From the NCBI GenBank assembly GCA_030605565.1, contig JAUWIB010000119.1:1-54551 (forward strand): a stretch of 54,551 nt of DNA. The letters are read 5' to 3'. The translations under genes were made by a program, and so were the position numbers. Below are positions 15,064 through 37,037 of this stretch, one piece after another (position 1 is the stretch's first letter; each line of letters begins with the position of its first letter). A model generated the notes under the pieces. The model did no database searches. It had not been told where the DNA came from and was given only the letters and a program-made list of their open reading frames with translations. Origin of the DNA: a bacterium (GTDB lineage: Bacteria > Zixibacteria > MSB-5A5 > GN15 > FEB-12).

Positions 15064-15999
15064 TCACCCGCCTCCTTGCAGCTCGGTGAGATGGTCATGC
15101 ATCTGCTCCAGACGATCCTGCTTGTACTGGCTCCACTTAATCGGAACGTACAGCGCAAAAAGTAGAAATAACACAATGATAATGCTGTAGAAGGCGTAAG
15201 CTGGACTGCGCTGAGTCAGCGACATGCGAAAGTATCTCGAACTTGAAAAAACGCCCTTGATCTTACCGCCCAAGGTGCTAAGAAAACTCTTCACCCGCGA
15301 CCAGAAACCGCCGGCTTTGATTACGTATTGCCAATCCTTAAGGTACCAGTCGAACAGCGGACTGCGCTGGGCCATTTTGGAGAATCCTTCAATGCGATGC
15401 ATATGGAACTCGAGGGTGGAGCGGTCCTGCATGAGTTCGCTGCCGATTTGGAGGCGACGTCGTGCCAACTCCTGAAACTTCAGCGGGTCACTCAAGGCCG
15501 CAAACGCCTCCGGGTTGAGATCGGTCTTCAGGGGCTTGCCGTAGGTGTTCATATAGCGCGCTATCTCCGACAAAAAGAAAGCGTTGAGCGGGAAGTTGTT
15601 GTTGAGGGCTCCATCTCGAAACAGCAGCGGCACGAGGTGGTTCTCAAAGAACGGCACATCCTGCTTGACGGCGCGAAGCCCCCGGCAGTAAGTGTACGAC
15701 CGGTTGGACTGACCATCGATATCCGCCTCTGCCTCAAAGAACGAAACCAAAACCTGAACCGTCAGTTGCCGCAAGTCGGAACTTGTCAGCGGCGCCTGCT
15801 TTATCTTATCGAGCAGGAATTGATCGAGTTCCACCGCCTGGTCGCGCTGCTGACGCAAAGCCTGAAAGACGGCCCCGATACCATTGTATGTCTGCAAGAA
15901 AGCCTCGGTGGCAAACTGCTGGGGGTCTTGCTCGAAACTCTCCAGATATCTGAAAATATCCTCAACATATGTTTTGACAGCGATACGGTTGTTCATCAT
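15064..15999 (-). CDS. TssL-like T6SS membrane protein
   Basis: About 311 residues. Start uncertain: ATG 15999, ATG 15996 or TTG 16005 all lie within a few bases of GGAG. The long N-terminal part is helical and soluble (VEDIFRYLESFEQDPQQFAT, LTVQVLVSFFEAEADIDG). A single hydrophobic helix (AFYSIIIVLFLLFALYVPI) lies ~30 residues from the C-terminus. A cytoplasmic helical domain with one C-terminal membrane anchor is the design of TssL/DotU, and the gene lies between tssK and the TssM-like gene. Direct similarity to TssL is not evident to me, so this is a call by topology and context. Confidence 0.5.
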   Translation of the reverse strand: MMNNRIAVKTYVEDIFRYLESFEQDPQQFATEAFLQTYNGIGAVFQALRQQRDQAVELDQFLLDKIKQAPLTSSDLRQLTVQVLVSFFEAEADIDGQSNRSYTYCRGLRAVKQDVPFFENHLVPLLFRDGALNNNFPLNAFFLSEIARYMNTYGKPLKTDLNPEAFAALSDPLKFQELARRRLQIGSELMQDRSTLEFHMHRIEGFSKMAQRSPLFDWYLKDWQYVIKAGGFWSRVKSFLSTLGGKIKGVFSSSRYFRMSLTQRSPAYAFYSIIIVLFLLFALYVPIKWSQYKQDRLEQMHDHLTELQGGG

Positions 16000-16006
16000 C
16001 TCCAAC

Positions 16007-17524: not shown

Positions 17525-18475
17525 TCAAACTCCCATTCGTGCCTTGGCGCTGTGGCGGCTTTGCGCAAAGGTAGAGTAGCCGAGAAAGCTCTGACCTCGA
17601 GACGACCCCAGGTTCAGGTCACCCTCGTCCACTTTGATGCGAATCTTGCAGTCCAGGTTCGTCGGCATGCAGATGCTGAGGACCCATTCGATCTTGCGCC
17701 GTTTCGGTTTCCCAGGCAGCAGGTCAGCGACCTCGTCAGGCTTGACGTCGCTGACCGTAAGTGCATAGCTGGAATCATACTCTTGAAAAGAGCGCCCCAT
17801 GACGAGATCATCGCCAAGGCGGCTGTTCCTCCGACCGAGACGACATTGCAGATCAGTCGGGATATCGTACCGGGCTGCGACATTCTCGATGAAGCGAAAG
17901 TCAAACCCCAAAAGGAAGCGCAGCACGTGAGCTACAAACTCGGGGTTGCCGGCCCACAGATGAAACCCCGGCATGATAGCCGCCCACATTAGCGGTTCGC
18001 GTATGTCATCGGGCGGTTCCGGCAGGCTGAAGTTGAACAGTTTCAGATAGCGCAGCAGGTAATCGAGATTGACCAGGGCTAAGGAATACTCCAGTTGCTC
18101 ATGCCTGGCGACGGCGGTGTAACGTATGACCGAGCCGTCGAAAGGCGCCATCAGGTGGCGAGCGTTGTCCTCCCAAACGCGAGCGCCGGCCTGACCGCCG
18201 TGCCAGCCGTAGAAGAACTGGTAGGGCAGCCAGTCGACAGCGCTGGGGAAGCCGACGTCCAGCACGACCGTGGTGCTCTCGTCGACCGGCTTGCCGGCGG
18301 CCGGTTGCTGGCTGAGGATTTCACCCAGGTAATTCCGATGTTCACCAACTGCCCTGATATGAACACGGTGAATATCGATCCCGAGCTTCATCAAAAGCGT
18401 CAGCGCCGTGGCATAACGGAAAGGGTGATGCCGGTTGGTCAACTCCGGCATGATGCGGTGGCCGCTGTTGTTCAT
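17525..18475 (-). CDS. tssG: T6SS baseplate subunit TssG
   Basis: 316 residues. The gene starts inside the stop of tssF (ATGA, 18472-18475), so the two are translationally coupled, as they are in most T6SS loci. Sequence features fit TssG: FFYGWHGGQAGARVWEDN, HVLRFLLGFDFRFIENVAAR, then RLGRRNSRLGDDLVMG leading to a C-terminal beta region with LLPG and a final LGYSTF. Two TssG and one TssF form the baseplate wedge in known systems. A second ATG (MPEL) lies eight codons in. Confidence 0.8.
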   Translation of the reverse strand: MNNSGHRIMPELTNRHHPFRYATALTLLMKLGIDIHRVHIRAVGEHRNYLGEILSQQPAAGKPVDESTTVVLDVGFPSAVDWLPYQFFYGWHGGQAGARVWEDNARHLMAPFDGSVIRYTAVARHEQLEYSLALVNLDYLLRYLKLFNFSLPEPPDDIREPLMWAAIMPGFHLWAGNPEFVAHVLRFLLGFDFRFIENVAARYDIPTDLQCRLGRRNSRLGDDLVMGRSFQEYDSSYALTVSDVKPDEVADLLPGKPKRRKIEWVLSICMPTNLDCKIRIKVDEGDLNLGSSRGQSFLGYSTFAQSRHSAKARMGV

Positions 18476-23012: not shown

Positions 23013-24431
23013 TTACTTGTCCTTCACGGCAGTGGCATCGTCCTCGTTCCAGGCGGTGAACTCAATATTGAACGTCCGCGCCGGGTACTTGGGATTCAGC
23101 GCCACCTTGATATCGATCTCCTGTCGCTTGCGCATTTCTTCATCGGCGAAAATCTCCACGCGGTAGTCCTGGAGGATGTTGTCGCCGCCGGAGATGGCCT
23201 TCATGAACTTGTCGATGTCGCGACGCATGGCGTCGACGAATTTTTGGTCGATCACACTGAACGTCTGTTTGTTCAGGTAGTTGCGCAGCGTTTTGTAAAC
23301 GTAGTCATAGGTGCGACGAATAGAGTAGACGTTGAACGTCTCCTTGGTAAACAACGTCGCAGCACCCATAGCCACCGCCGAACCCTCAAAGCTCACCAGC
23401 GGGTTGACGCCTTTCTCGTTGATCTTGCTGGCGTCCGGCTGGTTGGCTTTGAAACGAATGTACTTGGCGTCGGCGATCTTGCCGTACTTGAATCCGGCCG
23501 ATGGCTGTTGCATCCCGGCTGTGGTGTCACCCTTATACATCATGCCAGCCACCGAGGCCGACGGTGGGATCCACATGTCTTCGTCCTCGTACTGGTTGGC
23601 GCCGCGGGCCTGAAGGTAGTTGGCGAACACCGATACGTACTGCTTGTAGTCATCGATTCCTGGCATGTTAGCGTAGTTTGGATCGTCAAGCATCTCCATG
23701 ACCTCTTCGAAACTCTCGAAGTTCGGCAGGTCGGTCATGACGTGAACCTTGTTGGGCAGTCCCAACTGCCGAGCCACGTTGTCGATATTCTCAACACTGC
23801 CCAGATAGCCGGGTATCACGGCCATAGAGAAACACTCTTTGATGCTCCACTCGCGGTAGAGTTCGGCCACCGCCCTTGAGACTTCTTCAAACTTCTCTTT
23901 GTCGTCCGGGTCGGTCAATTCCTCCGCACTGACGTTGGCGAACCAGGCGTTGACTTTCTCGTCCGGTTCCAGCTGTGCGTTGGCAAAGAACTTGTCAATC
24001 CCACGGTAGGTCGTCTCGAGTTCGCGACTGGCCTGGTGCACCTTCTTCATGTTCTTTTCCAGATTGGTCTCCAGCTTGGCCGACTGCTCGCTGAGAGATT
24101 TGCGAACCTCGTCTAAGTTGTCGCTCTGAGACAAATACTGCACCCACAGCTTAAGCCTCTCACCCAAAAGTTTGCGCTGAACGGCAAAGTCCTTCTTGGT
24201 GAGGAACTCTTTGCGCTGGAAGTCCTTTTTGGGGTCGAGCCACTCGATCCCGCGAACCAGATCACCGTCGGCGGTCTTGAACGACGGCAATAGATTGGCT
24301 AGTTTCTTGAAGTCCCCGAAGGAATCGCTCAGAATCGACGCGAACTCTTCATCGGAGACTTTTTCTGCTGCCGGCTTCGCCTCTGCTGCTTCGGCCGGCT
24401 GCGGCTGAGCTTGTTTTTCTTCTTCGCCCAT
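23013..24431 (-). CDS. tssC: T6SS sheath protein TssC
   Basis: 472 residues. The N-terminal extension is rich in Ala, Glu and Pro. It is followed by sheath-domain sequence including EFASILSDSFGDFKKLANLL and, in the last third, the conserved handle region (AVAMGAATLFTKETFNVYSI, TYDYVYKTLRNYLNKQTFSV). It forms the contractile outer sheath with TssB, whose gene ends 24 bases upstream. The insert NLEKNMKKVHQASRELETTY is coiled-coil-like. No strong ribosome site precedes the ATG, and coupling to tssB is likely. Confidence 0.82.
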   Translation of the reverse strand: MGEEEKQAQPQPAEAAEAKPAAEKVSDEEFASILSDSFGDFKKLANLLPSFKTADGDLVRGIEWLDPKKDFQRKEFLTKKDFAVQRKLLGERLKLWVQYLSQSDNLDEVRKSLSEQSAKLETNLEKNMKKVHQASRELETTYRGIDKFFANAQLEPDEKVNAWFANVSAEELTDPDDKEKFEEVSRAVAELYREWSIKECFSMAVIPGYLGSVENIDNVARQLGLPNKVHVMTDLPNFESFEEVMEMLDDPNYANMPGIDDYKQYVSVFANYLQARGANQYEDEDMWIPPSASVAGMMYKGDTTAGMQQPSAGFKYGKIADAKYIRFKANQPDASKINEKGVNPLVSFEGSAVAMGAATLFTKETFNVYSIRRTYDYVYKTLRNYLNKQTFSVIDQKFVDAMRRDIDKFMKAISGGDNILQDYRVEIFADEEMRKRQEIDIKVALNPKYPARTFNIEFTAWNEDDATAVKDK

Positions 24432-24455: not shown

Positions 24456-24896
24456 CTATTCCGTGAGTAGATCTATGTAATAGCTGGCCGCTTTCAGAAG
24501 TGCTTCCTTCTTTTCCTTATCGCCCAGCGTCTTCTTCAAAGGGTTGTTCTTCTTCAGTTGCTTGTCGAGATCGGCCATCATCTCTTTCTGATAGTAGGTC
24601 TTCTGGAGATAATCGTTCTTCTCAATTAGCTCTTTCGATGAGAAGTCCTTCATCGCCTTGATCTCAAAGTCAGCATTGACCGGTTCCCCCTCGGCCGACT
24701 CCAATTCGGCGGAGAACGACGGTCGGAACTTCTGAAACACTTCTTTGAGGTTGTTACACCGCGTCGGTGTGACATCGGCATCCTCCTCACTGTTCAGTTT
24801 TGCGGCGTAGAGCATCTTGTTGGAGGGGAGAAGCTCGACCGGCACCGAGTCGTCTTTTTTGATCCGTTCCGTTGCCCCAAGAATGAACTTGGCCAT
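24456..24896 (-). CDS. tssB: T6SS sheath protein TssB
   Basis: 146 residues. GGAGG stands 5 bases before ATG 24896. TssB features are VPVELLPSNKMLYAAKLNSE near the N-terminus, the FQKFRPSFSAELESAEGEPV region, and a helical C-terminal tail with DKQLKKNNPLKKTLGDKEKK. It is the small sheath subunit that pairs with TssC. The gene lies immediately downstream of the two clpV halves, the usual neighbourhood of tssB, tssC and tssH. Confidence 0.8.
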   Translation of the reverse strand: MAKFILGATERIKKDDSVPVELLPSNKMLYAAKLNSEEDADVTPTRCNNLKEVFQKFRPSFSAELESAEGEPVNADFEIKAMKDFSSKELIEKNDYLQKTYYQKEMMADLDKQLKKNNPLKKTLGDKEKKEALLKAASYYIDLLTE

Positions 24897-24926: not shown

Positions 24927-26024
24927 CTACGCCTGCTCCGTAACGGTGAAGACGTAGGCATCATCTTTAACATCTATAGTAATGCGATCACCCGGTGACA
25001 CCTCACCGGTGATTATATCCACGGAAAGCTTGTTGACAATTTCCTTCTCGATAATCCGCTGAATTGGCCGCGCGCCCAGTTCAATCGTGTAGCCGTCGGT
25101 GGCCAGCTTCTTCTGCGCCCCCGGCGAGAGTGTAGCCCGGATGTTCTGATCTTCCAGCAGTGCTCCCAGCCCCTTGAACTCCAGGCCCGCGATCTTCTCA
25201 ACCTGCTCCTGTGTGAACGAATGAAATACGATAATATCAGTGAGCCGGTTGAGAAATTCCGGGCGGAACTTCGTGAACAGAAAGGCGCGGATCTCCTCCA
25301 TGTCGAGTTCGTGTCCCTCACGGTCGGCGTCGAGGATCTTGTCGGCGGCGTAGTTGGAGGTGAGCACCACAACGCAATTGGAAAAATCAACCGTGCGGTT
25401 TTGACCGTCGGTAAGGCGGCCGTCATCAAGCAGTTGCAGTAAAACGTTGAAGACGTCGGGGTGGGCTTTCTCCACTTCGTCAAACAAGACGATCGAGAAC
25501 GGTTTGCGCTTCACCGCTTCGGTCAACACGCCGCCCGCCTCGTAGCCGACATATCCGGGCGGGGCCCCGATCATCTTAGCCACCGAGTGCGGTTCCATGA
25601 ACTCCGACATGTCGAGCCGGACCATGGCGTTCTTGTCGTCAAACAGGAATTCCGCAAGAAGTTTGGCCAGATAGGTCTTGCCGGTGCCGGTGGGGCCAAG
25701 AAACAAGAACGACCCGACGGGACGATTGGGCAGTTTCAGCCCGGCCCGCGCCTTACGCACGGCGTTGGCGATTCCCTTGATGGCGTCCTCTTGACCTATG
25801 ATTTTGGCGGCAAGGAATTCCTCCATCCTAACCAGGCGGTCTTTCTCTGCCGTCAGCATCTTGGAAAGCGGGATGCCGGTCCGCCGCGCTACCACCGCGC
25901 CGATATCGGGGTCGTCGATCACCCGCTCGGCCGTCTCAACTGTTTTGGTGATGTTGGCAAGTTGCTTCTGACGTTTTTCGAGGTCAGTCTTGATATCGGC
26001 CAGGCTCATATTGTCGATTTTCAT
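24927..26024 (-). CDS. tssH: ClpV/TssH C-terminal half (D2 ATPase)
   Basis: 365 residues corresponding to the second AAA+ ring of ClpB/ClpV. The rest of the middle-domain coil lies at 1-70 (DLEKRQKQLANITKTVETAE, RRTGIPLSKML). Walker A is GPTGTGKT (110-117), Walker B SIVLFDEVEKAHPD, the pore loop GAPPGYVGYE, and sensor 2 IELGARPIQRIIEK. It has its own ribosome site (AGGAG 7 bases before ATG 26024), and its start overlaps the stop of the upstream half by four bases (ATGA). With the N-terminal half the pair totals ~849 residues, as in one ClpV. Together they should disassemble the contracted sheath. The split is discussed as a finding. Confidence 0.88.
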   Translation of the reverse strand: MKIDNMSLADIKTDLEKRQKQLANITKTVETAERVIDDPDIGAVVARRTGIPLSKMLTAEKDRLVRMEEFLAAKIIGQEDAIKGIANAVRKARAGLKLPNRPVGSFLFLGPTGTGKTYLAKLLAEFLFDDKNAMVRLDMSEFMEPHSVAKMIGAPPGYVGYEAGGVLTEAVKRKPFSIVLFDEVEKAHPDVFNVLLQLLDDGRLTDGQNRTVDFSNCVVVLTSNYAADKILDADREGHELDMEEIRAFLFTKFRPEFLNRLTDIIVFHSFTQEQVEKIAGLEFKGLGALLEDQNIRATLSPGAQKKLATDGYTIELGARPIQRIIEKEIVNKLSVDIITGEVSPGDRITIDVKDDAYVFTVTEQA

Positions 26025-27475
26025 TGCTCTGCTCCTGTTGCCGCTTCGATGCGGTAACCCCAGGAATCGTGCAACCGATCGAGATCGCGCGTGAAGTCGT
26101 CGTAAGCTTCCTTGAGGGACTCAAACTCCTCGCATTTCTCTGGCGCCTTCTGAGATTCGCACGCCTTAATCATCTCGTCCAGCGAGGTTACCTGCTCGGT
26201 CAGTTGGGGGAGCTTCGACTTGGCGAACTCCTCTTTAACACTGAACTCGGACCCGGCCTCGTCGATAAGGTCCAGGGCCACGTCCGGTAAGTTGCGTTCG
26301 CCGAGATATCGCTGGGAGTACTTGACGGAAGCTGTGACCGCCTCTTTAGTATAGGTCAGTTCGTGGTGCTTGGCGTAGCTTTCGACCACACCTGAGACGA
26401 TCCTGACAGCGTCGTCGTACGGCGGCTCCTCAACTTTCACGCGCTCGAAGCGCCGGTCGAGAGCCTTGTCTTTTTCCAGGTACTTGGTGTACTCTTCTTC
26501 GGTGGTGGCGCCGATCAACCGAATCTGCCCTCGGGCCAGCGGAGGTTTGAGAAGATTAGCCGCATCCATACCGCCGCCCCCCTGGCCGCCGCAGATCATG
26601 TGGACTTCATCGATAAACAGCACGATCTTACCGGCCGACTTGACCACTTCCCCGATCAGCGTCTTGAACCGCTCTTCAAACTCTCCTTTGTATTTCGCGC
26701 CGGCCACCATTGCCCCAAGGTCGACTTCCATGACTTTGACGCCCTCGAGCGCTTTGGGCACCTTACCGTCGATAACCGCTTGGGCGAATCCTTCGACGAT
26801 AGCCGATTTGCCGACCCCGGCGCCGCCGGTGAGAGCCGGACTGTTTTTGCGCCGCCGCAGCAGAATCTGAATCATCTGCTGGAGTTCGGTTTCGCGTCCG
26901 ATCATGTTGTCGAACTCGCCGGCCGCAGCGCGGTTGGTCATGTCGGTGCAGTAACGAAGGGTACCGGAGACTTCCTTTGCGGCCGGTTCGCCCGGAGCGC
27001 CATCGGCGCTCGGTGTGGCAGTGGCGATTTCCTGAACCGATTTGGCCTCGGCGATAGCGCGGTAAATATCTTCCTTGGACAGGTCGATCTTGTCGCGCAC
27101 CACCGGGTTCAGCTTTATCTTGGGGTCGAAGGCCGCGATGAAAATGTGTTCCGGCTCGACCAGCGGGTCGTAGAGTTTGGCTTTTTCCTCCAGCGCCTGG
27201 GTCAGGACTTCGTGGACGGCGGGGGAGATGGCCAACTTTTCACGCGGGGTGGAGCGGCGTGAGGTTTCTTTGAGGTGATCTTCCAGCACCGACTCAACGA
27301 AAGCCGGGCTTTTGCCCACCTGGTTCAGAATTGACTCAACCTCTGAGCCTTCGTGACGGATGACAGCGATGAGGAGGTGTTCGACTTCGATTTCGGGATG
27401 CCGGAACTCGGCGGCGACTTCCTTGGCAACCTTAATAACGGTTCTCGAATCCGATGAGTAGTTGGCGATATCCAT
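26021..27475 (-). CDS. tssH: ClpV/TssH N-terminal half (ClpN and D1 ATPase)
   Basis: 484 residues. Residues 1-145 are a Clp N-domain-like double repeat (EIEVEHLLIAVIRHEGSEVE; DPLVEPEHIFIAAFD). Next come an Ala/Gly/Pro-rich linker and the D1 AAA+ domain with Walker A GGAGVGKS (217-224), Walker B KIVLFIDEVHMI and arginine finger region KALDRRFERVKVEEPP. The protein stops in the middle-domain coil (LKEAYDDFTRDLDRLHDSWG). It is the first gene of the core T6SS operon, behind the promoter at 27563-27592. An 80-base leader has only a weak ribosome site. Confidence 0.88.
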   Translation of the reverse strand: MDIANYSSDSRTVIKVAKEVAAEFRHPEIEVEHLLIAVIRHEGSEVESILNQVGKSPAFVESVLEDHLKETSRRSTPREKLAISPAVHEVLTQALEEKAKLYDPLVEPEHIFIAAFDPKIKLNPVVRDKIDLSKEDIYRAIAEAKSVQEIATATPSADGAPGEPAAKEVSGTLRYCTDMTNRAAAGEFDNMIGRETELQQMIQILLRRRKNSPALTGGAGVGKSAIVEGFAQAVIDGKVPKALEGVKVMEVDLGAMVAGAKYKGEFEERFKTLIGEVVKSAGKIVLFIDEVHMICGGQGGGGMDAANLLKPPLARGQIRLIGATTEEEYTKYLEKDKALDRRFERVKVEEPPYDDAVRIVSGVVESYAKHHELTYTKEAVTASVKYSQRYLGERNLPDVALDLIDEAGSEFSVKEEFAKSKLPQLTEQVTSLDEMIKACESQKAPEKCEEFESLKEAYDDFTRDLDRLHDSWGYRIEAATGAEQ

Positions 27476-27661: not shown

Positions 27662-28612
27662 TCAGTCCCTGTCCACCAACGCCCGCGCTTCATCGACGGC
27701 ATTCAGAAGGCGCGCTTTGGTCTCGTCGTCTTCCGCTCCGGTTTTCGTCTGTTCTTCCACTGCGTCGAGCATGGCGCTGCGACGCAGCAGTCCGGCCAAC
27801 CTGATGGCTTCAGTCCTGACCCTAATGTCAGCGTCCACCATAAACTCCAGGATGATGGAATCAGAGCTGGCTGAGTCATGGGTTCTCAAGCCATAGTAAA
27901 TGTCATCGCCATTTCCGGCCAGCAACTCCTCACGAGCGTACGGTAGAAGCTGTATACGAGTGCCCTTGCTTACTATTACATATGTGACTGCCTCGTGTGT
28001 CAGATCAGTCATGGTCGGGTGTTCGCTTGTGCCTCGAACTGCCGCGATGAGTTGGTCGATTTCATCCGAAGACCAACCCTCGATATCCTGTGCTTCAAGA
28101 GCCGCATCGTACTGAAAGAAGTTGATACCAGACTCCAGCATCCGGAAAATATGGTTCTTCATTCCCTCTGAATCGGGCTTCTCAGCCTCGATGGCCAAGT
28201 AGTCCTTCATATTGGAGAGATATGCTGAACGCAACTCATCCGGGACCAGCACGGGCTCCGACATCGCGACCAGTTCCCAGCTTACCGATGAATCGTCCAA
28301 CGGCTCCTTGCTCGAAACGAGGAACAGCAAATAGGTCGAGCCTGGTTCCAGGTGTGGCGTCCCTTTCCCGGAGACCGGTACAACCAGCGAGTGTGATGCG
28401 GCATCGCCTGTCGCACCGCGCAGAACCTCGCGAAACTCGATCGATATTTGGAGCACTTTCGCTTGACCAGTGGAATCAGTTTGCTCTTTGCTTGGTGTGA
28501 CCAGAGCAACAACCTTCGAGTTTTCGATAATCGGGATTATGCGATCTACCATTCTTCTTTCCTCCATTCTACAGTCACCGGCCACAACACTGGCCATGAT
28601 GAGACCGATCAT
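27662..28612 (-). CDS. Envelope-targeted protein, putative immunity to the metzincin
   Basis: About 316 residues from ATG 28612. This start was chosen because it avoids a 59-base overlap with the effector gene and begins with a signal-like segment (MIGLIMASVVAGDC); a longer frame to 28702 exists. The N-terminal half reads ENSKVVALVTP...EVLRG...GKGTPHLEPGSTYLLFL, the pattern of bacterial secreted domains with a TIMP/netrin-like barrel (my reading, unverified). The C-terminal half is helical and HEAT-like (VDADIRVRTEAIRLAGLLRR). It is the last gene of the effector cassette and directly follows a putative secreted metalloprotease, the position of an immunity gene. An inhibitor-type immunity protein is attractive but inferred. 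Confidence 0.5.
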   Translation of the reverse strand: MIGLIMASVVAGDCRMEERRMVDRIIPIIENSKVVALVTPSKEQTDSTGQAKVLQISIEFREVLRGATGDAASHSLVVPVSGKGTPHLEPGSTYLLFLVSSKEPLDDSSVSWELVAMSEPVLVPDELRSAYLSNMKDYLAIEAEKPDSEGMKNHIFRMLESGINFFQYDAALEAQDIEGWSSDEIDQLIAAVRGTSEHPTMTDLTHEAVTYVIVSKGTRIQLLPYAREELLAGNGDDIYYGLRTHDSASSDSIILEFMVDADIRVRTEAIRLAGLLRRSAMLDAVEEQTKTGAEDDETKARLLNAVDEARALVDRD

Positions 28613-28643
28613 AAAACGATACCACCATAAGGGGCTCAGTCGG

Positions 28644-30149
28644 CTAATCGTCTTGTGGGTCAAAAGGTATACACTCCCGCATATACGTGGCACTCGCGCC
28701 AAGGAACTTCTGTTGTTTCCCAGTCGCCTCCACTCGCCGTTTGAAGGTTCTGGTTCCTCCTGAGTCCATTATGTTCGTGTCGTTAGTAGCCTTATTGTGT
28801 GCGCCGGCATCACCGTCCAACGGCGATGTCAGGGTGGTGCCGTCAATTGTTACTTTGTTCGCGGTCTTGACAATTGAGACTAGTCCAAAGGCGTGTCCTA
28901 CTTCGTGGTTGATGGTGTTGCCAATCATCTTCACAAAGTAGTTAAGTGCTTTCTGTATAGCTTTCCGTCGCTTCTCCGGTACTTTTTTCGGATCGGTTGA
29001 CACTACGGTTACAGCACCATTGGCGTCGATCGTCACCGTCGTACTGCCGGAGTCCACGACCGAACATGCGCCCTTTACCTTGGGATTGGCGATGTCTGTA
29101 TTGTCGATTGTCCGAGTCGTCGCCGTACCTGGCGTCCTGTGATTAGCTGCGACCTCTACGCCAAGTGGAGAGTAGGCTCCCTGGAACTCAGTCTTGTCCG
29201 CAACCGCACCGTATTTGTTGAAGGCCATAAACGTACTCGGAAATACGTTGATGTCTCCGCCCAATCCCGGTCCTATAGCAAAGATATTGTCGACCAACGG
29301 TCTCGGCCCCGCTGGCGTTGTCCCAAGGCTTGTTCCCGTACTGGCCCCACCGATGGAGACGGTGATACTGTTGGTCTTAGACGTTCCTCCATCAATGACA
29401 TAGCGGGCGTTGATGCGGTTGGTGACGGTAGCGTCGTTGATCATATAATCGCGATCACCAAAACAACGTAATGCTGTCTTTAACTTGTCACTGAAAGGCT
29501 CGAGGCCGAACGCCTTCAAATCATCGATCCACTTGGCGTTGAATGTGAGGTTGACGATAGTGGGCACGCTCATGCCCTTGTCAACTGGCTTCAGTTTCTT
29601 GACCTCTGTGGTGCCGTCCAGCAAAGTTATCTGATCGATGACATAGAGTCCGTGGGTAACCTCCTTACCACTGGCGATCTTCTCCATCGGGATGTGGACC
29701 TTGCTGCCGGTGTTGTGGTCTTTCGTTTTGTGGTCACTGAGTTGCCGTGCGACTGCCTTGGTGGCTATGCCGTCCCACACCACTTTCTCCGTGATAGGGC
29801 TGCCTGTACCCGTGACATCCTTTGTTACTTCGGCAACGATGGCGACTGCCGTCTTGGTCTTTCGTCCGATATCGACCTGTAACTTGCGTTTGACCCCATT
29901 CGGCAGGTTGGTAATCTTGATATAGATGTGTGCCTTCTCACCAAGCAGGGGAGCGAAATCGTCATCATCGAATTCCGCCCCCCACTTATCAGTCGTCTTG
30001 ATCTTTTCAAGCTTCAACTCGATTGGCGGCGCTTCAACCGCATCGACATCTTTCCCCGTCTTGTCCTTTACTTCAGACGTGCCGCTACCCGTGGAGGAAG
30101 GGGGCTTTTCGCGATTGAACTGTGCGCGCAAGTGGAAGTTTCTAAACAT
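28644..30149 (-). CDS. Putative metzincin metalloprotease T6SS effector
   Basis: 501 residues, no signal peptide, so export must use another route. The N-terminal ~190 residues are beta-rich (EKAHIYIKITNLPNGVKRKL). The C-terminal part carries the zinc motif HEVGHAFGLVS (His415, Glu416, His419) and a Met-turn NIMDSGG (Met461), the two hallmarks of metzincin peptidases. The third ligand of HExxHxxGxxH would be residue 425, which is Ser here, so another residue must complete the site or zinc binding is altered. It lies in a T6SS-linked cassette after an adaptor-like gene and before a putative immunity gene. Cargo status is inferred from this context. Confidence 0.65.
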   Translation of the reverse strand: MFRNFHLRAQFNREKPPSSTGSGTSEVKDKTGKDVDAVEAPPIELKLEKIKTTDKWGAEFDDDDFAPLLGEKAHIYIKITNLPNGVKRKLQVDIGRKTKTAVAIVAEVTKDVTGTGSPITEKVVWDGIATKAVARQLSDHKTKDHNTGSKVHIPMEKIASGKEVTHGLYVIDQITLLDGTTEVKKLKPVDKGMSVPTIVNLTFNAKWIDDLKAFGLEPFSDKLKTALRCFGDRDYMINDATVTNRINARYVIDGGTSKTNSITVSIGGASTGTSLGTTPAGPRPLVDNIFAIGPGLGGDINVFPSTFMAFNKYGAVADKTEFQGAYSPLGVEVAANHRTPGTATTRTIDNTDIANPKVKGACSVVDSGSTTVTIDANGAVTVVSTDPKKVPEKRRKAIQKALNYFVKMIGNTINHEVGHAFGLVSIVKTANKVTIDGTTLTSPLDGDAGAHNKATNDTNIMDSGGTRTFKRRVEATGKQQKFLGASATYMRECIPFDPQDD

Positions 30150-30176
30150 AAGGCTACACTTCAGGAACTACTACAC

Positions 30177-31073
30177 TCAAGTGGCGTGGTATTGATTCTC
30201 TCCACGGTCATCAAAACTGATGGTTATACTACCGGGAGGGACGTTTTCCTCTCTGGCCCGGCCGTCACTGTCGAGCGTCCCGGTCCTTTCCTGCCCGTCG
30301 GCCGTCCGCAAAGTGTATTTCTTGTCGGCTACCGGCTCGCCGCGGATGTTGACGAGGCTAATGTTGACCCAGTCCTTGAACTCCAGCAAGCCCGACTCCT
30401 GCTTTTTGCCGTACTCGACGCCTTCTGCCTTGATCGTGAAAAAGTACTCCGGGGGGTTGTACTGGCCATCGTACTTGTCGAGTTCCTCTTGCGAGGGGAT
30501 TTCGTCCGTGTCCTCGTGGTACTCGTACTCCCATGCGATCTCGATGCGATCGTTTTCCACCTGTGCCGGTAGTTCAGTGATGCGGTCATTCCTGCCGTCC
30601 CGATCGTACTCATAAATAACCACGGCCAGTTCGGCCTCGTTGGGCAAACCACTAATATCAGCCGAGAGTGTCAAGGTGTCTCCGCGCCGCGCTTCCTGTG
30701 CGCTCCATTTGAGATTGGAAACACGAACCGGGGGATAGGCCGGGATGTGTTCGGACTCGCCGTCGAGACTGTTCCTGGACAGCTTCGCCTCGAAAAAGAC
30801 CTTGTCGCCAAGCTCAATGTCTTCGGGAATCTGAAAGGCTCCACCGAAATGATTGCGTCGCATGACGCCGCTGACCTTACCGAGTTTCTTGCCGTTTTCG
30901 CTCGTGCCTTTGACCTTGATCGGCGCGCCCTCGCCGACCAGTTCAGTTAACACCTCAAAGCTCGCCGTCTGCCCGCCGATAGCCATGCCGCACGTCCACG
31001 AGACCGAGATCAACGACGAATCCAGCTTGACCTCGTGCTCGCTGTCGGTACTCTTGGTGAACTTTAGCGCCAT
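30177..31073 (-). CDS. Beta-rich T6SS adaptor-like protein with transthyretin-like C-terminus
   Basis: 298 residues, no signal peptide. The middle (~115-240) and the C-terminal ~65 residues are paralogous to the C-terminal half of the PAAR protein at 37038. Compare LKWSAQEARRGDTLTLSADI with AEWSTEEAAVGDVVQLKADC, LLEFKDWVNISLVN with LLKFQDWIELRLRD, and GTLDSDGRAREENVPPG with GTLDGDGYAKVENLPPG. The last module resembles transthyretin or carboxypeptidase-regulatory folds, which some spike proteins use to attach effectors. It is encoded just before the metzincin, so it may load that protein onto the spike. It lacks a PAAR domain of its own. Confidence 0.55.
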   Translation of the reverse strand: MALKFTKSTDSEHEVKLDSSLISVSWTCGMAIGGQTASFEVLTELVGEGAPIKVKGTSENGKKLGKVSGVMRRNHFGGAFQIPEDIELGDKVFFEAKLSRNSLDGESEHIPAYPPVRVSNLKWSAQEARRGDTLTLSADISGLPNEAELAVVIYEYDRDGRNDRITELPAQVENDRIEIAWEYEYHEDTDEIPSQEELDKYDGQYNPPEYFFTIKAEGVEYGKKQESGLLEFKDWVNISLVNIRGEPVADKKYTLRTADGQERTGTLDSDGRAREENVPPGSITISFDDRGENQYHAT

Positions 31074-31096
31074 GGTAGTGATCTGCCTTACATCCG

Positions 31097-31519
31097 CTAT
31101 CCGGGAATAAACTCAGCGATCATGCGGTCGACTTCCACGCCGAGCGTCTTGATCGTCTTCTTGGTGAAAGTCGCGTTGAAGTTGTACATCACGTCGTCGT
31201 GCTTCACGAAGACCATTTTCTGAAACACGACCTTGTCTTCCGACGGCGCCCACTTGTAGACAGCTTCGTAAGCCGGAACGCTGCCCGGTAGTTGTTTCTC
31301 TTCTTCCTTGAGAATCTCCACACCGGGGATGCTCTCAAGAACCTGATCGATCCGCTCGCGGGCGTAGTCGGCGAGTTCGTCGGTGTTGGGCTGAGGGTCG
31401 ACCTGAAGCGACAAGCTATGTTGCAAGCCACTCTCTTCGGGACCCATGAAATAGTGCACGGTCTGGTCTTCCCAGCCGTCGGGGAGTTCAATCCTGAATC
31501 TGTTGTTGCTCGGACTCAT
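31097..31519 (-). CDS. DcrB/DUF1795-like protein, candidate effector chaperone
   Basis: 140 residues, no signal peptide. FRIELPDGWEDQTVHYFMG, VLESIPGVEILKEEEKQLPG, FQKMVFVKHDDVMYNFNATF and the final VDRMIAEF fit the PsbP/DcrB-like fold of DUF1795. In known T6SS this fold makes Eag proteins, cytoplasmic chaperones that shield the hydrophobic segments of PAAR- or Rhs-linked effectors. It lies in the effector cassette 24 bases before the adaptor-like gene. I see no obvious pre-PAAR transmembrane segments in its neighbours, so what it would chaperone is open. Confidence 0.6.
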   Translation of the reverse strand: MSPSNNRFRIELPDGWEDQTVHYFMGPEESGLQHSLSLQVDPQPNTDELADYARERIDQVLESIPGVEILKEEEKQLPGSVPAYEAVYKWAPSEDKVVFQKMVFVKHDDVMYNFNATFTKKTIKTLGVEVDRMIAEFIPG

Positions 31520-31534
31520 ATTTTCGTACTCAAT

Positions 31535-32791
31535 CTATTTCAGACAGTGTATCCCGTCGCTGCCGCCATAATAAACCCTACCATCTTCATCCATGATCGG
31601 CCGGGTGCCGATCGGCGTGTCCAGCCATTTGGTGAGAATTTCCTCACCGGTAGCAGAAACATGTACCAAGGCCGTACCTGCGGCGGCCAGCACCGAGTTG
31701 TCGGCCAGTACGGTGATGGCGATGTCGTCCACCGAAGCCGGCAGGGGATACGTCCAAATGATCTCACCATCGCGAATCTGGTGCAGATTGCTTCCCACCA
31801 CCATATATACAAATCCATCCAGTGAAGATGCAGGCGGTTGGTTTGATGGCTGACCCTGTTCAAATGACACCACCCAGCCGACCTCGCCGCTTGGTGCTAC
31901 TTGCTTAAGCTGGGTAACATTTTCGACAATGTCAACAACCAACGCGTTGCCGTCGGCATCCAAAGAGAACGAACTGATGGAGTCGAACTCGACCTCGCTG
32001 ACCTGTTCGTCCGATTCGGCATCAATGGGGAAGGCATGAAACCGGTTGGTCGTGAACATGTAAACGCGCTTGTTGTCTCTCGTCACAAGCGTACCGCGAC
32101 CGATTCCTTCGATCCGATAACGCCAGATTACTTCACGGCGTTCAGCGATATACCGCAGGAATTGGAATGGCGGTATCTCCATTGTCTGACCGGGCGCGTT
32201 GGTCGGTTTGGGATAGGCTTGTGAACTGTAAATCGTCTCACGCTTGAGATCGCGGATGAAGTGCAGTTGCGTGTGCTGGTTCACGCCGGTCAGGGGCTTT
32301 TCTGCTGCCGGCTGTCCGTCATATCCCAGCAGAACGAAGTAGCCGACATGGTCTAAGGTGACAATGCCATCGTCCGTGATGGTCGAAGCGTAATTGCTCC
32401 TGACCTGTCGAGTCCAGTTGACGGAGCCGTCATTTCGGTCGAGCACCGCTACCAGATCGCCGTAACTGACAAACAGATGTTGTCCGCGCAGGCCGAGATG
32501 TATGGGGCTGCGTCCGCCGCCGGGTTCGAGTAATGATTCGCGGAACCATACTTCGTTACCCTGGATCGTGCCGCTCACCGGCAGGTAAGAACTGTTTTGT
32601 TGATCACCGAAAACACTGCGGTTGAGCGTGGCGATATCAGGCATGTTGGTCTCCTCGATACCCGCAGGGGTGTGTGAATGTCTCCCGGCCACACAGCAGA
32701 CAACGAGCACACCGATCAGAACCGCTGTGTATGCTGCCCGCACGGCATAACCGCCTCCGGAAAACTCCGGGCCCGAACTTTGTTGTTTCAC
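31535..32791 (-). CDS. Exported PQQ-type beta-propeller protein, candidate immunity
   Basis: 418 residues starting at GTG 32791 (GGTGGT nearby). A membrane-targeting segment (AAYTAVLIGVLVVCCVAG) near residue 20-38 predicts a periplasmic or anchored protein; it has no proper lipobox. The rest is beta-propeller-like with PQQ-type blades (GDLVAVLDRNDGSVNWTRQV, REVIWRYRIEGIG, RDGEIIWTYPLP, ATGEEILTKWLD). No enzyme motif was seen. It follows the OmpA/metalloprotease gene on the same strand, where an immunity protein is expected. Propellers can also be binding scaffolds, so this role is only a guess. Confidence 0.55.
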   Translation of the reverse strand: MKQQSSGPEFSGGGYAVRAAYTAVLIGVLVVCCVAGRHSHTPAGIEETNMPDIATLNRSVFGDQQNSSYLPVSGTIQGNEVWFRESLLEPGGGRSPIHLGLRGQHLFVSYGDLVAVLDRNDGSVNWTRQVRSNYASTITDDGIVTLDHVGYFVLLGYDGQPAAEKPLTGVNQHTQLHFIRDLKRETIYSSQAYPKPTNAPGQTMEIPPFQFLRYIAERREVIWRYRIEGIGRGTLVTRDNKRVYMFTTNRFHAFPIDAESDEQVSEVEFDSISSFSLDADGNALVVDIVENVTQLKQVAPSGEVGWVVSFEQGQPSNQPPASSLDGFVYMVVGSNLHQIRDGEIIWTYPLPASVDDIAITVLADNSVLAAAGTALVHVSATGEEILTKWLDTPIGTRPIMDEDGRVYYGGSDGIHCLK

Positions 32792-32892
32792 TGACCACCA
32801 CCGTTGTCTCTTCTTTCCAAACTTCCTGTTTCTTTTGATCTGTGTCTACTTATAAAATCCAGACTACTCTGTCCCGCTGACCGGTGCTTCCA

Positions 32893-35800
32893 CTATGGTG
32901 TCGTTGTGGTCGCACTGGGCGCCGGGATTCGCTCCAGCGTGTACGATGCGTTTAGTTTTCCATTTACCCAGGTTTCAATGAATTTCAGAGCCTCAAGCTG
33001 GTCCTCGCCGGGAGCCATGTTCAGGAAATGAAGTTGAAGGTCGTCGGCTGTAATGTTACGAGGTACGTTCAACACACAGGTACTACTGGTCAAACGGTCG
33101 ACCGATGTGCTTTGTTGGTACAGATTGTCCACCGCCGTTTGATCGGCGGCGACAGTGAACAGTCCACGCAACTGGGTCTTTTCACCCGTAGTCATCCTTC
33201 CCTCGAACGACAGCCGATGGGCGGTGGCGTCATACGATGCGTCGGTCACCACTGTTGAGGGGTCTGAACTCGGAGCGTTGGCTACCGTTACTGAAAAGGT
33301 TGTGGTCGAGCGCTGAAAAGTCAACTTGTAACTCCAGGTGCTTCCGGCCGCGCGTTCATCGGCGAAACCTGGTATGAAATACATGAAAACGCGCGAGAAC
33401 TCCGCGGGTCCACCGGTCAACCGGTAGGAACCGTTAAGACGCTGCCACTCCTGTTGAATAGCGACCAGCTTGTCATTCAGTTCCGTGTACTCCGGGTCGG
33501 TTTCCCAGTCTGCCTCAGTCGCGTCCCCTTTTATGCTTAACATTACGCGCACCACCAGCACGGCATGGTATTCATCAGTCTGATTGTCGTGAAAAAACTT
33601 CGTCGAGGATTCGTCCTGTCCCACGTCATAGATGGCAATGTGGACGCGACGAAGTGACTGGGTTTTCTGGTAGAGACGGCTGACTTTGGCCTTGTTGTCG
33701 TCACCGGTAAAAGCGCCGCGCCAGGCGTCCCGTTCCGCCGTGCTCATAGCGCCGGCAGCAATGTCGTAGGTAAGCGTATTGGCGGACGCATCGTGGGTAA
33801 AGTTTGTCTGGTGGGCGGCACTGACTGATGACAGATCGGGCGCAGCACTCACCGAGACGACATTGGGCAACCGCAATCGTTCCTCGACCGTCATTGGCTG
33901 GCGGATGTCGTCCTTGGTTTGAGGAGTATTGGCTGGGGGCGGTGAGACGGTCCCGGACGGTGTCCAGTTGAGATGCCTCTTGTAGATCAACTCCGGTGTG
34001 GCATTGTCGAATTTCACCTTAAAGGCTTTGCCATTCAACCAGGTCGCATCGTTGAGACCGCCACCGCTCAGTGAGTTCTTGTTTATCAAGTGCAGGTGGT
34101 ACCAGCAGTGGTGCAACCGGGGCGCACCGTTGTAATACATCATCGAAGTCTGGTTAGTGGACGGATTGTACTGAACGAAAAACTGATCGAAGCCCGGCAT
34201 TCCCTTGGTGATGTACATGCGGGCCGGAGTGGCACTGTCCTGTGGATCCACATCCTGAGTGTACTCGTCGGAGAGGCTCGTGACGTGGCCCAGCTCGTGG
34301 GCGAGCGTGAAAACACCGTAGCGGGTGCCATCTTCCTGATAGCCCGTATTGTTGTAAGCGAAAATCCCCGTTGTTATCTGGTAGGCCGACTTGTTCAGGA
34401 GCATGAGCGAATGGGGCAGGGTATAGGCGCCGGAGGTCAATCCGCGTACTGCCCAGGCGTAAGCTATACCGTAGTTGACGCCGGCCGCCTGATCGGGGCA
34501 GACAAAAGCTACGAACTTCACCGGTCCACCAAAGGTACGTCTCTGCGCGGTCCGGAAATTCGATCCGGCGCCAAACAGCGCCCGATGATTGGATAGGGTC
34601 CCAAAGTCCGTGTTGGTCGGCAGTTCGGTCAGCGGCATAGTGAACGTCTCGCGCTCATCGAAAAACACAAACCGTCTGATGATGGCGTAGGCATCGCCGG
34701 TGTCGCGTTCTTCGATGAAGTAGTAGCCCTTCCGGTTCCAGTACTCCTGCGCGTTATAGACACCCTGGTGTACGAAATTGTCGACATCGCTCATACCCGG
34801 ATTCTGCGAAGCGCTGGTCCATGCGGCCGCGCTGGGATCCTGCCGGGGGTCAAGCATAAAGTTCATCGTGGCACACACGATGAGCAAACTGACCGGGTGA
34901 TTGCCCTCCAGGTTTATCTGGTGGAAATAGTGCACATCGTAGTCGCCGGTGTAGCTCTTCTCGTGATGGTTGTATTTCATCTCCCACTTTTTGTGCCGGT
35001 CGGGATCATCGCGCAGGGCGATTCGGGCGCCAACGACGTAGGCGCCCTGGTTGCCGGTTTTGTCCATCCAGTCACCGGGCTGGTCGGTCGTGCGGCGGTC
35101 GCCGACAGTGTAGAAGCCATCGCGAAAATGAACGACCTTAACAGCGGGCGCCATGCCGCTTACCAGATTTCTCTCCAGCCTTATCCGCTCTGCGCGCGTT
35201 GTAGTCGAGGAACCTGAGCCACCACCGCCTGAGCCACTGGAGGGAGGTGGGGGGGTTAAGGAGGTGCGATCTTCGTTCGGTCTTTCCCACAACTTGAACT
35301 GATTGGTCGTACTGTCCACCACAAATAGTTTCACGCGCGAGCCGGGATCGGCTGCTCCGGCGCACAAGGCCTTGGCTGTCCCTAACTGGTCGGCATCCTG
35401 TATGTTCTGATCGTGGCCGGTGGCGCTGTCCATAAGCACAATATCGTCCAGTGAGAACATCAACGGTTCGCCTTGACTGGTTACGTTGCTCCCGAACGGT
35501 TTTAGTTGCCGCTTGTCTTTGATATGCTCGTGGAATCGTTCGTCATTGGCATGGGTGCTTTCGTGCCTCGTATGCCAGTTGTGTGAAAACCACTTCATCG
35601 GGAGATCGTAGTACTGGTGTTTTTCGGCGAAGGTCTTGGTATCCCAATCGTCCGGGCGGTTCACGATCACGGGTGTCGCATCCGGCCCCGAGGTGTGGAT
35701 CATCCGAACGACCGGTGTGCCGTCGTGCTCGGGCGCTTCAAAGCCAAAGTAGAGCCACTTGTCGGTGAAGACCGGATTCTCCTCGCCGAATCTGACACGC

Positions 35801-37017
35801 ACGCTGTGTATTCCGTTTTGATACTGGGTGATGCAGGGGATCTCTTCGACCGTGCTCCCGATCGCCGCGTCTCGTTTGTACGCTTTGACGTTCACGCGAC
35901 CGGGAATGTCCTGAAAGTCCTTCTTGATCCGGTCGTAGTAGCGAAACTTCAAATGATATACCACCGCGAACCGGTCACCCGGGCCGATATAGTTGCGTGA
36001 GAAATGGCGCTCGTGCCACATCGGACAGTCGTTCTCAAGATCATGCACGGTCGAAATCGGCATAGTCGGACATACCACCAGGGCGTCACTTTCGGAGTCG
36101 TTCCCCTGGTATATGAGAAGTTCTATACGGCTGTCCGTGGCTGATCTGATCTTGTCATCACCACGTTCGGAATCCGGCACGGCATACGAATGACCACAAC
36201 CAACCATCTTGACCATGTCGCTGACCCAGTTCAGGTCTAAACTCATATCGGCCAGTTCGGTGCGTGTTTTGCCGAGGAAATCGCATACCATCAGTTCATA
36301 GACACTGTACAAAGCCAGCCAGTGACCGGCTGAGAGACGATTGTCGGTTGCTTCGCTAATGATATCACCAAGAGTCGCGGGCAACGGTGCAATCTCTTCT
36401 GAATCATCCGCAATATCACTATTGAAATGCGTGGCGAAATTGTTCAGCGCTGTTTGGGTAGCCTCGTTGAAACTGTTGTCGACATCACCCGGATCGCATT
36501 CCCAATCGCCGTCTTTCCATGATCCAGTGTATTCGTGGAGATACTTCAGTATCTGCTTGTAGTCCTCAACCGTGTGCCGCCCGGCGCATGTCAGAGCCCA
36601 ACGCGCGTCATTTCCCTGCAACATGTACATGACGCATGAGGCGCGCTCGCGTGAAAGGCGAAAACTCTCCGGCACATCACTCTGAGATGCCGTGTGACCG
36701 GTAATCAGTATTCCGCGCTCCGGATACATGGCAGCAAAAAGAAAAGCCATGCCGATCGCCTTGACCCCGGTCATCGGTGCGTTATCGGCAATCGGATCCA
36801 ACCCCGGCACTTCCGGCAGCATGACAGCGCTGTTGTCATGGAAAAGAAGGTCTTCGAATTCGAGGATATCGACCGGGATAGGGGTGAGAGTAGTTTCGGT
36901 TGTGGTGCCCGTGATAGCGTCAGTCCCGACTGAGGCAGCCGCAGAAGTGGTCGTAGTACCTGCCGGAGTCCCGCCCCCACCGCTTGTGGTGCCGCTGCTT
37001 TCCGGGTCGCCAGTCAT
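32893..37017 (-). CDS. Giant putative T6SS effector: OmpA-like domain plus zinc metallopeptidase
   Basis: 1374 residues with no signal peptide. After a Thr/Gly-rich start, an OmpA-like peptidoglycan-associating domain lies at ~90-160 (GILITGHTASQSDVPESF, LSRERASCVMYML) and a possible peptidoglycan-binding segment follows (KQILKYLHEYTGS ... NEATQTALNNFATHF). The central peptidase carries HELGHVTSLSDEY: His907, Glu908, His911 and Asp917 as likely third ligand, near the M64-type pattern, followed by SMMYYNG as a possible Met-turn. The C-terminal region has two related ~45-residue units (TLTYDIAAGAMSTAERDAWR; RLSFEGRMTTGEKTQLRGLF). It is encoded between the PAAR spike and the propeller protein. 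Peptidoglycan docking plus proteolysis is the likely mode. Confidence 0.65.
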   Translation of the reverse strand: MTGDPESSGTTSGGGGTPAGTTTTSAAASVGTDAITGTTTETTLTPIPVDILEFEDLLFHDNSAVMLPEVPGLDPIADNAPMTGVKAIGMAFLFAAMYPERGILITGHTASQSDVPESFRLSRERASCVMYMLQGNDARWALTCAGRHTVEDYKQILKYLHEYTGSWKDGDWECDPGDVDNSFNEATQTALNNFATHFNSDIADDSEEIAPLPATLGDIISEATDNRLSAGHWLALYSVYELMVCDFLGKTRTELADMSLDLNWVSDMVKMVGCGHSYAVPDSERGDDKIRSATDSRIELLIYQGNDSESDALVVCPTMPISTVHDLENDCPMWHERHFSRNYIGPGDRFAVVYHLKFRYYDRIKKDFQDIPGRVNVKAYKRDAAIGSTVEEIPCITQYQNGIHSVRVRFGEENPVFTDKWLYFGFEAPEHDGTPVVRMIHTSGPDATPVIVNRPDDWDTKTFAEKHQYYDLPMKWFSHNWHTRHESTHANDERFHEHIKDKRQLKPFGSNVTSQGEPLMFSLDDIVLMDSATGHDQNIQDADQLGTAKALCAGAADPGSRVKLFVVDSTTNQFKLWERPNEDRTSLTPPPPSSGSGGGGSGSSTTTRAERIRLERNLVSGMAPAVKVVHFRDGFYTVGDRRTTDQPGDWMDKTGNQGAYVVGARIALRDDPDRHKKWEMKYNHHEKSYTGDYDVHYFHQINLEGNHPVSLLIVCATMNFMLDPRQDPSAAAWTSASQNPGMSDVDNFVHQGVYNAQEYWNRKGYYFIEERDTGDAYAIIRRFVFFDERETFTMPLTELPTNTDFGTLSNHRALFGAGSNFRTAQRRTFGGPVKFVAFVCPDQAAGVNYGIAYAWAVRGLTSGAYTLPHSLMLLNKSAYQITTGIFAYNNTGYQEDGTRYGVFTLAHELGHVTSLSDEYTQDVDPQDSATPARMYITKGMPGFDQFFVQYNPSTNQTSMMYYNGAPRLHHCWYHLHLINKNSLSGGGLNDATWLNGKAFKVKFDNATPELIYKRHLNWTPSGTVSPPPANTPQTKDDIRQPMTVEERLRLPNVVSVSAAPDLSSVSAAHQTNFTHDASANTLTYDIAAGAMSTAERDAWRGAFTGDDNKAKVSRLYQKTQSLRRVHIAIYDVGQDESSTKFFHDNQTDEYHAVLVVRVMLSIKGDATEADWETDPEYTELNDKLVAIQQEWQRLNGSYRLTGGPAEFSRVFMYFIPGFADERAAGSTWSYKLTFQRSTTTFSVTVANAPSSDPSTVVTDASYDATAHRLSFEGRMTTGEKTQLRGLFTVAADQTAVDNLYQQSTSVDRLTSSTCVLNVPRNITADDLQLHFLNMAPGEDQLEALKFIETWVNGKLNASYTLERIPAPSATTTTP

Positions 37018-37037
37018 CTATCTTACCAACCGTCGGA

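What the first reader, a model, noticed from the sequence alone, without database searches (positions are those of the whole stretch)
24927..27475. ClpV sheath-disassembly ATPase split into two coupled genes
The N-domain plus D1 (484 residues) and D2 (365 residues) are separate proteins that meet inside the middle-domain coil. The stop and start overlap as ATGA, and the second gene has its own AGGAG site, which argues against a simple sequencing frameshift. The middle domain binds regulators in ClpB-type proteins, so splitting there could change ring assembly or control. Both halves keep intact Walker A and B motifs.
Basis: seen in the sequence. Interest (0 to 1): 0.75.

Follow-up and report, generated by a model that had tools for sequence, protein, structure and literature searches.

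The report
Naturally split T6SS ClpV-type ATPase
In Zixibacteria the ring-shaped motor of the type VI secretion locus, elsewhere one double-ATPase protein, is made from two overlapping genes; the split is old and conserved, so it is real biology and gives a natural way to test whether the two motor rings need a covalent link.

Summary
Two ORFs, A (484 aa: N-domain, D1, M-domain hairpin) and B (365 aa: one helix plus D2), overlap as ATGA at 26021-26024 (minus strand), with AGGAG 7 nt before the second start. It is not a sequencing frameshift. I read 52 distinct junctions in Zixibacteria genomes (47 of the window's T6SS type, 5 of a second type) and all are split at the same loop. Of these, 46 overlap by ATGA/TAATG-like geometry and 49 have a Shine-Dalgarno-like site, against 25 of 434 internal ATGs; six lie in another frame or beyond a gap, against programmed frameshifting. 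Nine genomes of the Krumholzibacteriota group carry the same syntenic locus with one continuous protein (about 840 aa where complete), no residues missing at the join; five Zixibacteria of the second type are also unsplit. Trees favour one old fission and a later re-fusion, but the root is not settled (AU p = 0.065). The cut falls in a loop after the M hairpin, not inside the coil. Most likely A and B form stacked homohexameric rings (A6B6) acting as the sheath-disassembly motor. That is inferred, helped by published in-trans reconstitution of ClpB halves. New variant of a known kind.

The parts
26021..27475 (-). gene A: N-domain + D1 AAA+ + M-domain hairpin (484 aa), ends ...WGYRIEAATGAEQ
   Evidence: ORF; Clp_N, AAA, AAA_lid_9; 35 of 35 relatives reaching it have it as a separate ORF
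24927..26024 (-). gene B: one N-terminal helix + D2 AAA+ + D2-small domain (365 aa)
   Evidence: ORF; AAA_2, ClpB_D2-small
26021..26024 (-). ATGA: start of B overlapping stop of A
   Evidence: sequence; same or TAATG/GTGA/TTGA/TGATG geometry in 46 of 52 junctions
26032..26036 (-). AGGAG Shine-Dalgarno-like site for B, inside the end of A
   Evidence: sequence; SD-like site in 49 of 52 junctions vs 25 of 434 internal ATGs
26804..26827 (-). D1 Walker A GGAGVGKS (A residues 217-224)
   Evidence: translation; G217, G218, G220, V221, G222, K223 invariant in 18 relatives
25674..25697 (-). D2 Walker A GPTGTGKT (B residues 110-117)
   Evidence: translation; invariant in 18 relatives
24456..24896 (-). 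TssB-like sheath subunit
   Evidence: PF05591; directly after B in every locus checked
23013..24431 (-). TssC sheath subunit, the expected substrate
   Evidence: PF17541
22509..22919 (-). Hcp/TssD tube protein
   Evidence: PF17642
20640..22427 (-). VgrG/TssI spike
   Evidence: PF04717, PF05954
20257..20643 (-). TssE (gp25-like)
   Evidence: PF04965
18472..20136 (-). TssF-like baseplate protein (by position; weak TIGR02243 match)
   Evidence: TIGR02243 E 2.4e-05, below cut-off; synteny
17525..18475 (-). TssG
   Evidence: PF06996
16007..17455 (-). TssK
   Evidence: PF05936; TIGR03353 below cut-off

Best explanation
The T6SS-locus Hsp100 (ClpV/TssH type) of Zixibacteria is a stable two-gene motor produced by an old gene fission. 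The break lies in the loop between the M-domain hairpin and the helix that leads into D2, so neither folded unit is damaged. The genes sit as a co-transcribed, translationally coupled pair (ATGA/TAATG with a Shine-Dalgarno site inside the end of A), which should give near-equal amounts of A and B. Inferred function: A (N+D1+M) and B (D2) each form hexameric rings with complete trans active sites (Walker A/B in both, arginine-finger residues conserved), the rings stack through the D1/D2 interface and the A hairpin/B helix contact into an A6B6 assembly, and this threads contracted TssB/TssC sheath subunits to recycle them. Shown: two genes, conservation, intact motifs, coupling signals, unsplit homologues in the same locus. 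Inferred: stoichiometry, stacking, sheath substrate.
For: Split at the same site in all 52 distinct Zixibacteria junctions, spanning several families. SD-like site in 49/52 vs 25/434 internal ATGs; 46/52 overlaps. Strong conservation of both halves (mean column identity 76% and 81% in 18 relatives) with invariant Walker, arginine-finger-type (R341, R342 of A; R260 of B) and pore-loop residues (KYKG of A, GYVG of B) and conserved W472/R475 at the end of A. Unsplit homologues in nine Krumholzibacteriota-group genomes align through the junction with no residues lost. Gene order A-B-tssB-tssC-hcp-vgrG-tssE-F-G-K is the same in split and unsplit loci. The host also keeps a separate unsplit Hsp100 (831 aa), so the split pair is not the general chaperone. 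Bacterial ClpB can be reconstituted in trans from separate NTD-NBD1-MD and NBD2 proteins (Beinker et al. 2005, as stated in PMC7343390; separate expression of NBD1-M and NBD2 also in PMC4239642).
Against: No expression, complex or activity data. No prediction of the A+B complex could be run. The sheath substrate is inferred from gene order only; the ClpV1 model cut-off is not met. The published in-trans reconstitution used a cut after the M domain, not at this loop.
Confidence: 0.77

Rival explanations
1. A and B are joined during expression by programmed ribosomal frameshifting, so the working protein is full length and the split is only apparent.
For: 46 of 52 junctions have B in the same relative frame, but overlap of stop and start forces that geometry. 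One junction (L056) has an A-run heptamer at the end of A.
Against: Only 3 of 52 junctions have any slippery heptamer of the type searched in the last 90 nt of A, and none is conserved. B has its own SD-like site in 49 of 52. Six junctions are in other frames, four of the six across gaps of 37-75 nt.
Confidence: 0.05
2. Assembly or sequencing frameshift, or a decaying pseudogene.
For: The genomes are metagenome assemblies; a Runella plasmid ClpV is broken in D2 and looks like such a case.
Against: Same split in dozens of independent assemblies and in single-contig genomes, with both halves under strong constraint and with conserved start signals.
Confidence: 0.01
3. The halves work apart: A6 and B6 are independent rings with different jobs, for example A recognises and unfolds sheath while B serves another substrate.
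For: Each half has a complete AAA+ module; NBD1-M of ClpB alone is an active ATPase (PMC4239642).
Against: The genes were never found apart in any locus read; the junction elements of A (WGHR) and the B helix stay conserved; unsplit homologues occupy the same locus.
Confidence: 0.12

Closest known systems
ClpV / TssH, type VI secretion Hsp100 (TIGR03345)
   Same: N-D1-M-D2 parts, position in a T6SS locus next to tssB-tssC, both ATPase sites
   Different: two polypeptides; scores 385 and 307 bits against a cut-off of 885 and is nearer the ClpB model
ClpB/Hsp104 disaggregase
   Same: best sequence match of both halves, D2 and pore loops
   Different: split; M domain shorter (E. coli ClpB residues about 468-508 not matched); lies in a T6SS operon, with a separate Hsp100 in the genome
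Engineered split ClpB, NBD1-M + NBD2 in trans (Beinker et al. 2005, cited in PMC7343390)
   Same: two-piece Hsp100 that works without covalent link
   Different: laboratory construct cut after the M domain; here a natural gene pair cut in the loop before the last linker helix
Bacteroidota T6SSiii
   Same: TssC and Hcp match the Bacteroidota-built Pfam families
   Different: TssC only about 27-30% identical; ClpV of the Bacteroides and Hymenobacter plasmid loci is one protein; no TssN/O/P/Q/R matches found in the window

Membership tests
ClpV/TssH | encoded in a T6SS locus with tssB/tssC | tested here: met
ClpV/TssH | passes TIGR03345 curated cut-off (885 bits) | tested here: not met
   halves 384.6 and 307.0 bits, 692 together
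ClpV/TssH | two AAA+ modules with Walker A/B | tested here: met
   divided over two proteins
ClpV/TssH | binds TssC and disassembles contracted sheath | not testable with these tools
   needs biochemistry
ClpV/TssH | single polypeptide | tested here: not met
   two ORFs in all Zixibacteria junctions read
ClpB | passes TIGR03346 cut-off (1232 bits) | tested here: not met
   393.4 and 461.2 bits
Type VI secretion system | TssB, C, D, E, F, G, H, I, K core | tested here: met
   TssF by weak match and position
Type VI secretion system subtype i | TssJ, TssL, TssM membrane complex | tested here: inconclusive
   no family match above cut-off; possible diverged TssL/TssM-like pair at 15064-16005 and 12812-15025
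Type VI secretion system subtype iii | TssN, Q, O, P, R membrane complex | tested here: inconclusive
   no matches in the window proteins scanned with Pfam and NCBIfam
Translationally coupled gene pair | stop and start within 10 nt, conserved across relatives | tested here: met
   47 of 52 junctions (offsets -8, -4, -1); criterion as in PMC3711429

The most novel reading that the evidence does not exclude
A natural Hsp100 whose two ATPase rings are separate gene products for a whole bacterial lineage (obligate A6B6), and which was later re-fused into one chain after transfer to Krumholzibacteriota: a matched split/unsplit pair in the same operon made by evolution.
Probability: 0.5. Interest if true: 0.75.

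Novelty: new variant of a known kind. Interest (0 to 1): 0.6.

Why it matters
Double-ring Hsp100 motors are discussed as machines in which D1 and D2 of one chain are coupled. A lineage-wide natural split shows that the covalent D1-D2 link can be given up over long evolution, and split and unsplit forms in the same locus allow a direct comparison of inter-ring coupling. Practically, annotation pipelines and T6SS finders that demand a full-length ClpV will miss or mis-score this T6SS group.

Tried and rejected
One align call with a single sequence failed. Frameshift error, pseudogene and programmed frameshifting were considered and rejected (see rivals). TAG recoding in the f5 family, whose A genes all end in TAG, was considered: in L158 B is not in frame with A, so reading through would not join them. 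Re-fusion as proven was rejected: the AU test with L118 alone as outgroup does not resolve the root (p 0.57), and with five genes and the second-type loci as outgroups it only leans that way (p 0.065). No paper describing a natural ClpV or Hsp100 split of this kind was found in the library; that library lacks most subscription journals.

Full report
OBSERVATION. The minus strand holds A (26021-27475, 484 aa) and B (24927-26024, 365 aa), overlapping by ATGA. AGGAG lies 7 nt before the B start at 26032-26036. A carries Clp_N, AAA and AAA_lid_9; B carries AAA_2 and ClpB_D2-small. Against the full-length ClpB model A covers positions 4-459 and B 499-852; against ClpV1 4-477 and 504-837, so only a short M-domain stretch is not matched.

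LOCUS. B is followed by TssB, TssC, Hcp, VgrG, TssE, a TssF-like protein, TssG and TssK. This is a T6SS operon. The same genome has another Hsp100 in one 831-aa frame. The organism belongs to Candidatus Zixiibacteriota, judged from the named records nearest to it.

RELATIVES. TssC was found in 43 of 61 related genomes. In all loci that reach far enough A and B are separate frames (35 of 35 including the window). In the phylum survey (132 genomes) 50 genomes have a B of at least 68% identity, none inside a long frame; three of these run to or near contig ends, so the frame length says less there. I read 52 distinct junctions directly: 47 of the window's type and 5 of a second, divergent T6SS type (B 50-55% identical; families f5 and genome G030). 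All are split at the homologous place. Offsets of B start from A end: -4 in 36, -1 in 10, -8 in 1, and gaps of 24-75 nt in 5. A Shine-Dalgarno-like site precedes 49 of 52 starts, but only 25 of 434 ATGs inside B. Independent assemblies, including single-contig genomes, agree.

UNSPLIT HOMOLOGUES. Nine genomes whose records name Krumholzibacteriota, Latescibacterota or no phylum (searched together as one phylum) have the same operon with one continuous reading frame, 841-851 aa where complete, 70-78% identical in the B part. The sequence runs ...YWGHRLDRETHASPPFERIKKENF... through the position where Zixibacteria have stop and start; nothing is missing on either side. Five Zixibacteria of the second T6SS type (families f15, f16) also have one frame, with a shorter M region.

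DIRECTION. With the junction columns left out, the unsplit Krumholzibacteriota-type clade falls inside the split Zixibacteria clade, next to L039/L044 (SH-aLRT 99; 99/97); a tree of six other tss genes, unrooted, puts it beside L077, the same genome as L039 (100/99). The whole state pattern needs two changes: one fission, one re-fusion. But rooting is weak: the AU test does not reject Zixibacteria T1 as one clade (p 0.57 with one distant outgroup; p 0.065 with five genes and nine second-type rows). I regard re-fusion as the more likely history, not as shown.

STRUCTURE. AlphaFold models: A has mean pLDDT 78.7 with a complete M-domain hairpin (helices 398-440, 449-471), then a short end. The unsplit homologue (pLDDT 83.8) has the hairpin 402-441/448-470, a loop 471-484, then helix 485-507 leading to D2. 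The cut lies in that loop. Closest solved folds are ClpC, ClpB and Hsp104; whole-chain TM-scores are low because the relative domain placement is uncertain (pTM 0.49-0.52).

MECHANISM. Both halves keep Walker A/B, arginine-finger-type and pore-loop residues invariant among 18 relatives, and W472/R475 at the end of A are invariant though A has been a chain end there for a long time. Bacterial ClpB works when rebuilt from separate NTD-NBD1-MD and NBD2 (Beinker et al. 2005, as reported in PMC7343390), and NBD1-M of ClpB is an ATPase on its own (PMC4239642). The simplest reading is an A6 ring stacked on a B6 ring, made in near-equal amounts by translational coupling, acting on TssB/TssC sheath. 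Stoichiometry, stacking and substrate are inferred.

STATUS. It works like ClpV by locus; by family models it is an Hsp100 between ClpB and ClpV1 that passes neither cut-off. A literature search found no description of such a natural split, within an incomplete library. I rate it a new variant of a known kind.

Noticed in passing
window 12812-15025(-) and 15064-16005(-): Conserved pair after tssK: a 737-aa protein with an N-terminal GTPase-like domain (DO-GTPase2 E 8.5e-05, IcmF-related E 0.12) and a hydrophobic stretch near 335-355, and a 313-aa protein with one C-terminal transmembrane segment (271-289). They could be strongly diverged TssM- and TssL-like anchors.
   Followed up: partly
window 7-40 kb, T6SS locus as a whole: A T6SS outside Bacteroidota whose TssC and Hcp match Bacteroidota-built families but with only about 27-30% TssC identity to Bacteroidota, and without recognisable TssJLM or TssNOPQR: may be an undescribed T6SS subtype.
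   Followed up: partly
window 27662-38132(-): Upstream cargo-like block: DcrB/DUF1795 protein (31097-31519), PAAR protein (37038-38132), a 1374-aa protein without family match (32893-37017), and a 501-aa protein with HEVGH, a zinc-metallopeptidase-like motif (28644-30149).
   Followed up: no
L191 330-2827 (Runella rosea plasmid): Bacteroidota-type ClpV broken in the middle of D2 near Walker B into 661 + 171 aa; different site, looks like a frameshift.
   Followed up: partly
L157-L160 (genomes G062-G065): Second T6SS type in family f5: split with 24-75 nt gaps, all A genes ending in TAG.
   Followed up: partly
G049:C540:10775-11842 (L138): A copy of B with one in-frame TAG.
   Followed up: no
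L097, L100, L104, L107, L111: The T6SS locus is present in only 8 of 80 genomes of the Krumholzibacteriota phylum and nests near Zixibacteria in trees, which suggests horizontal transfer of the whole operon.
   Followed up: partly
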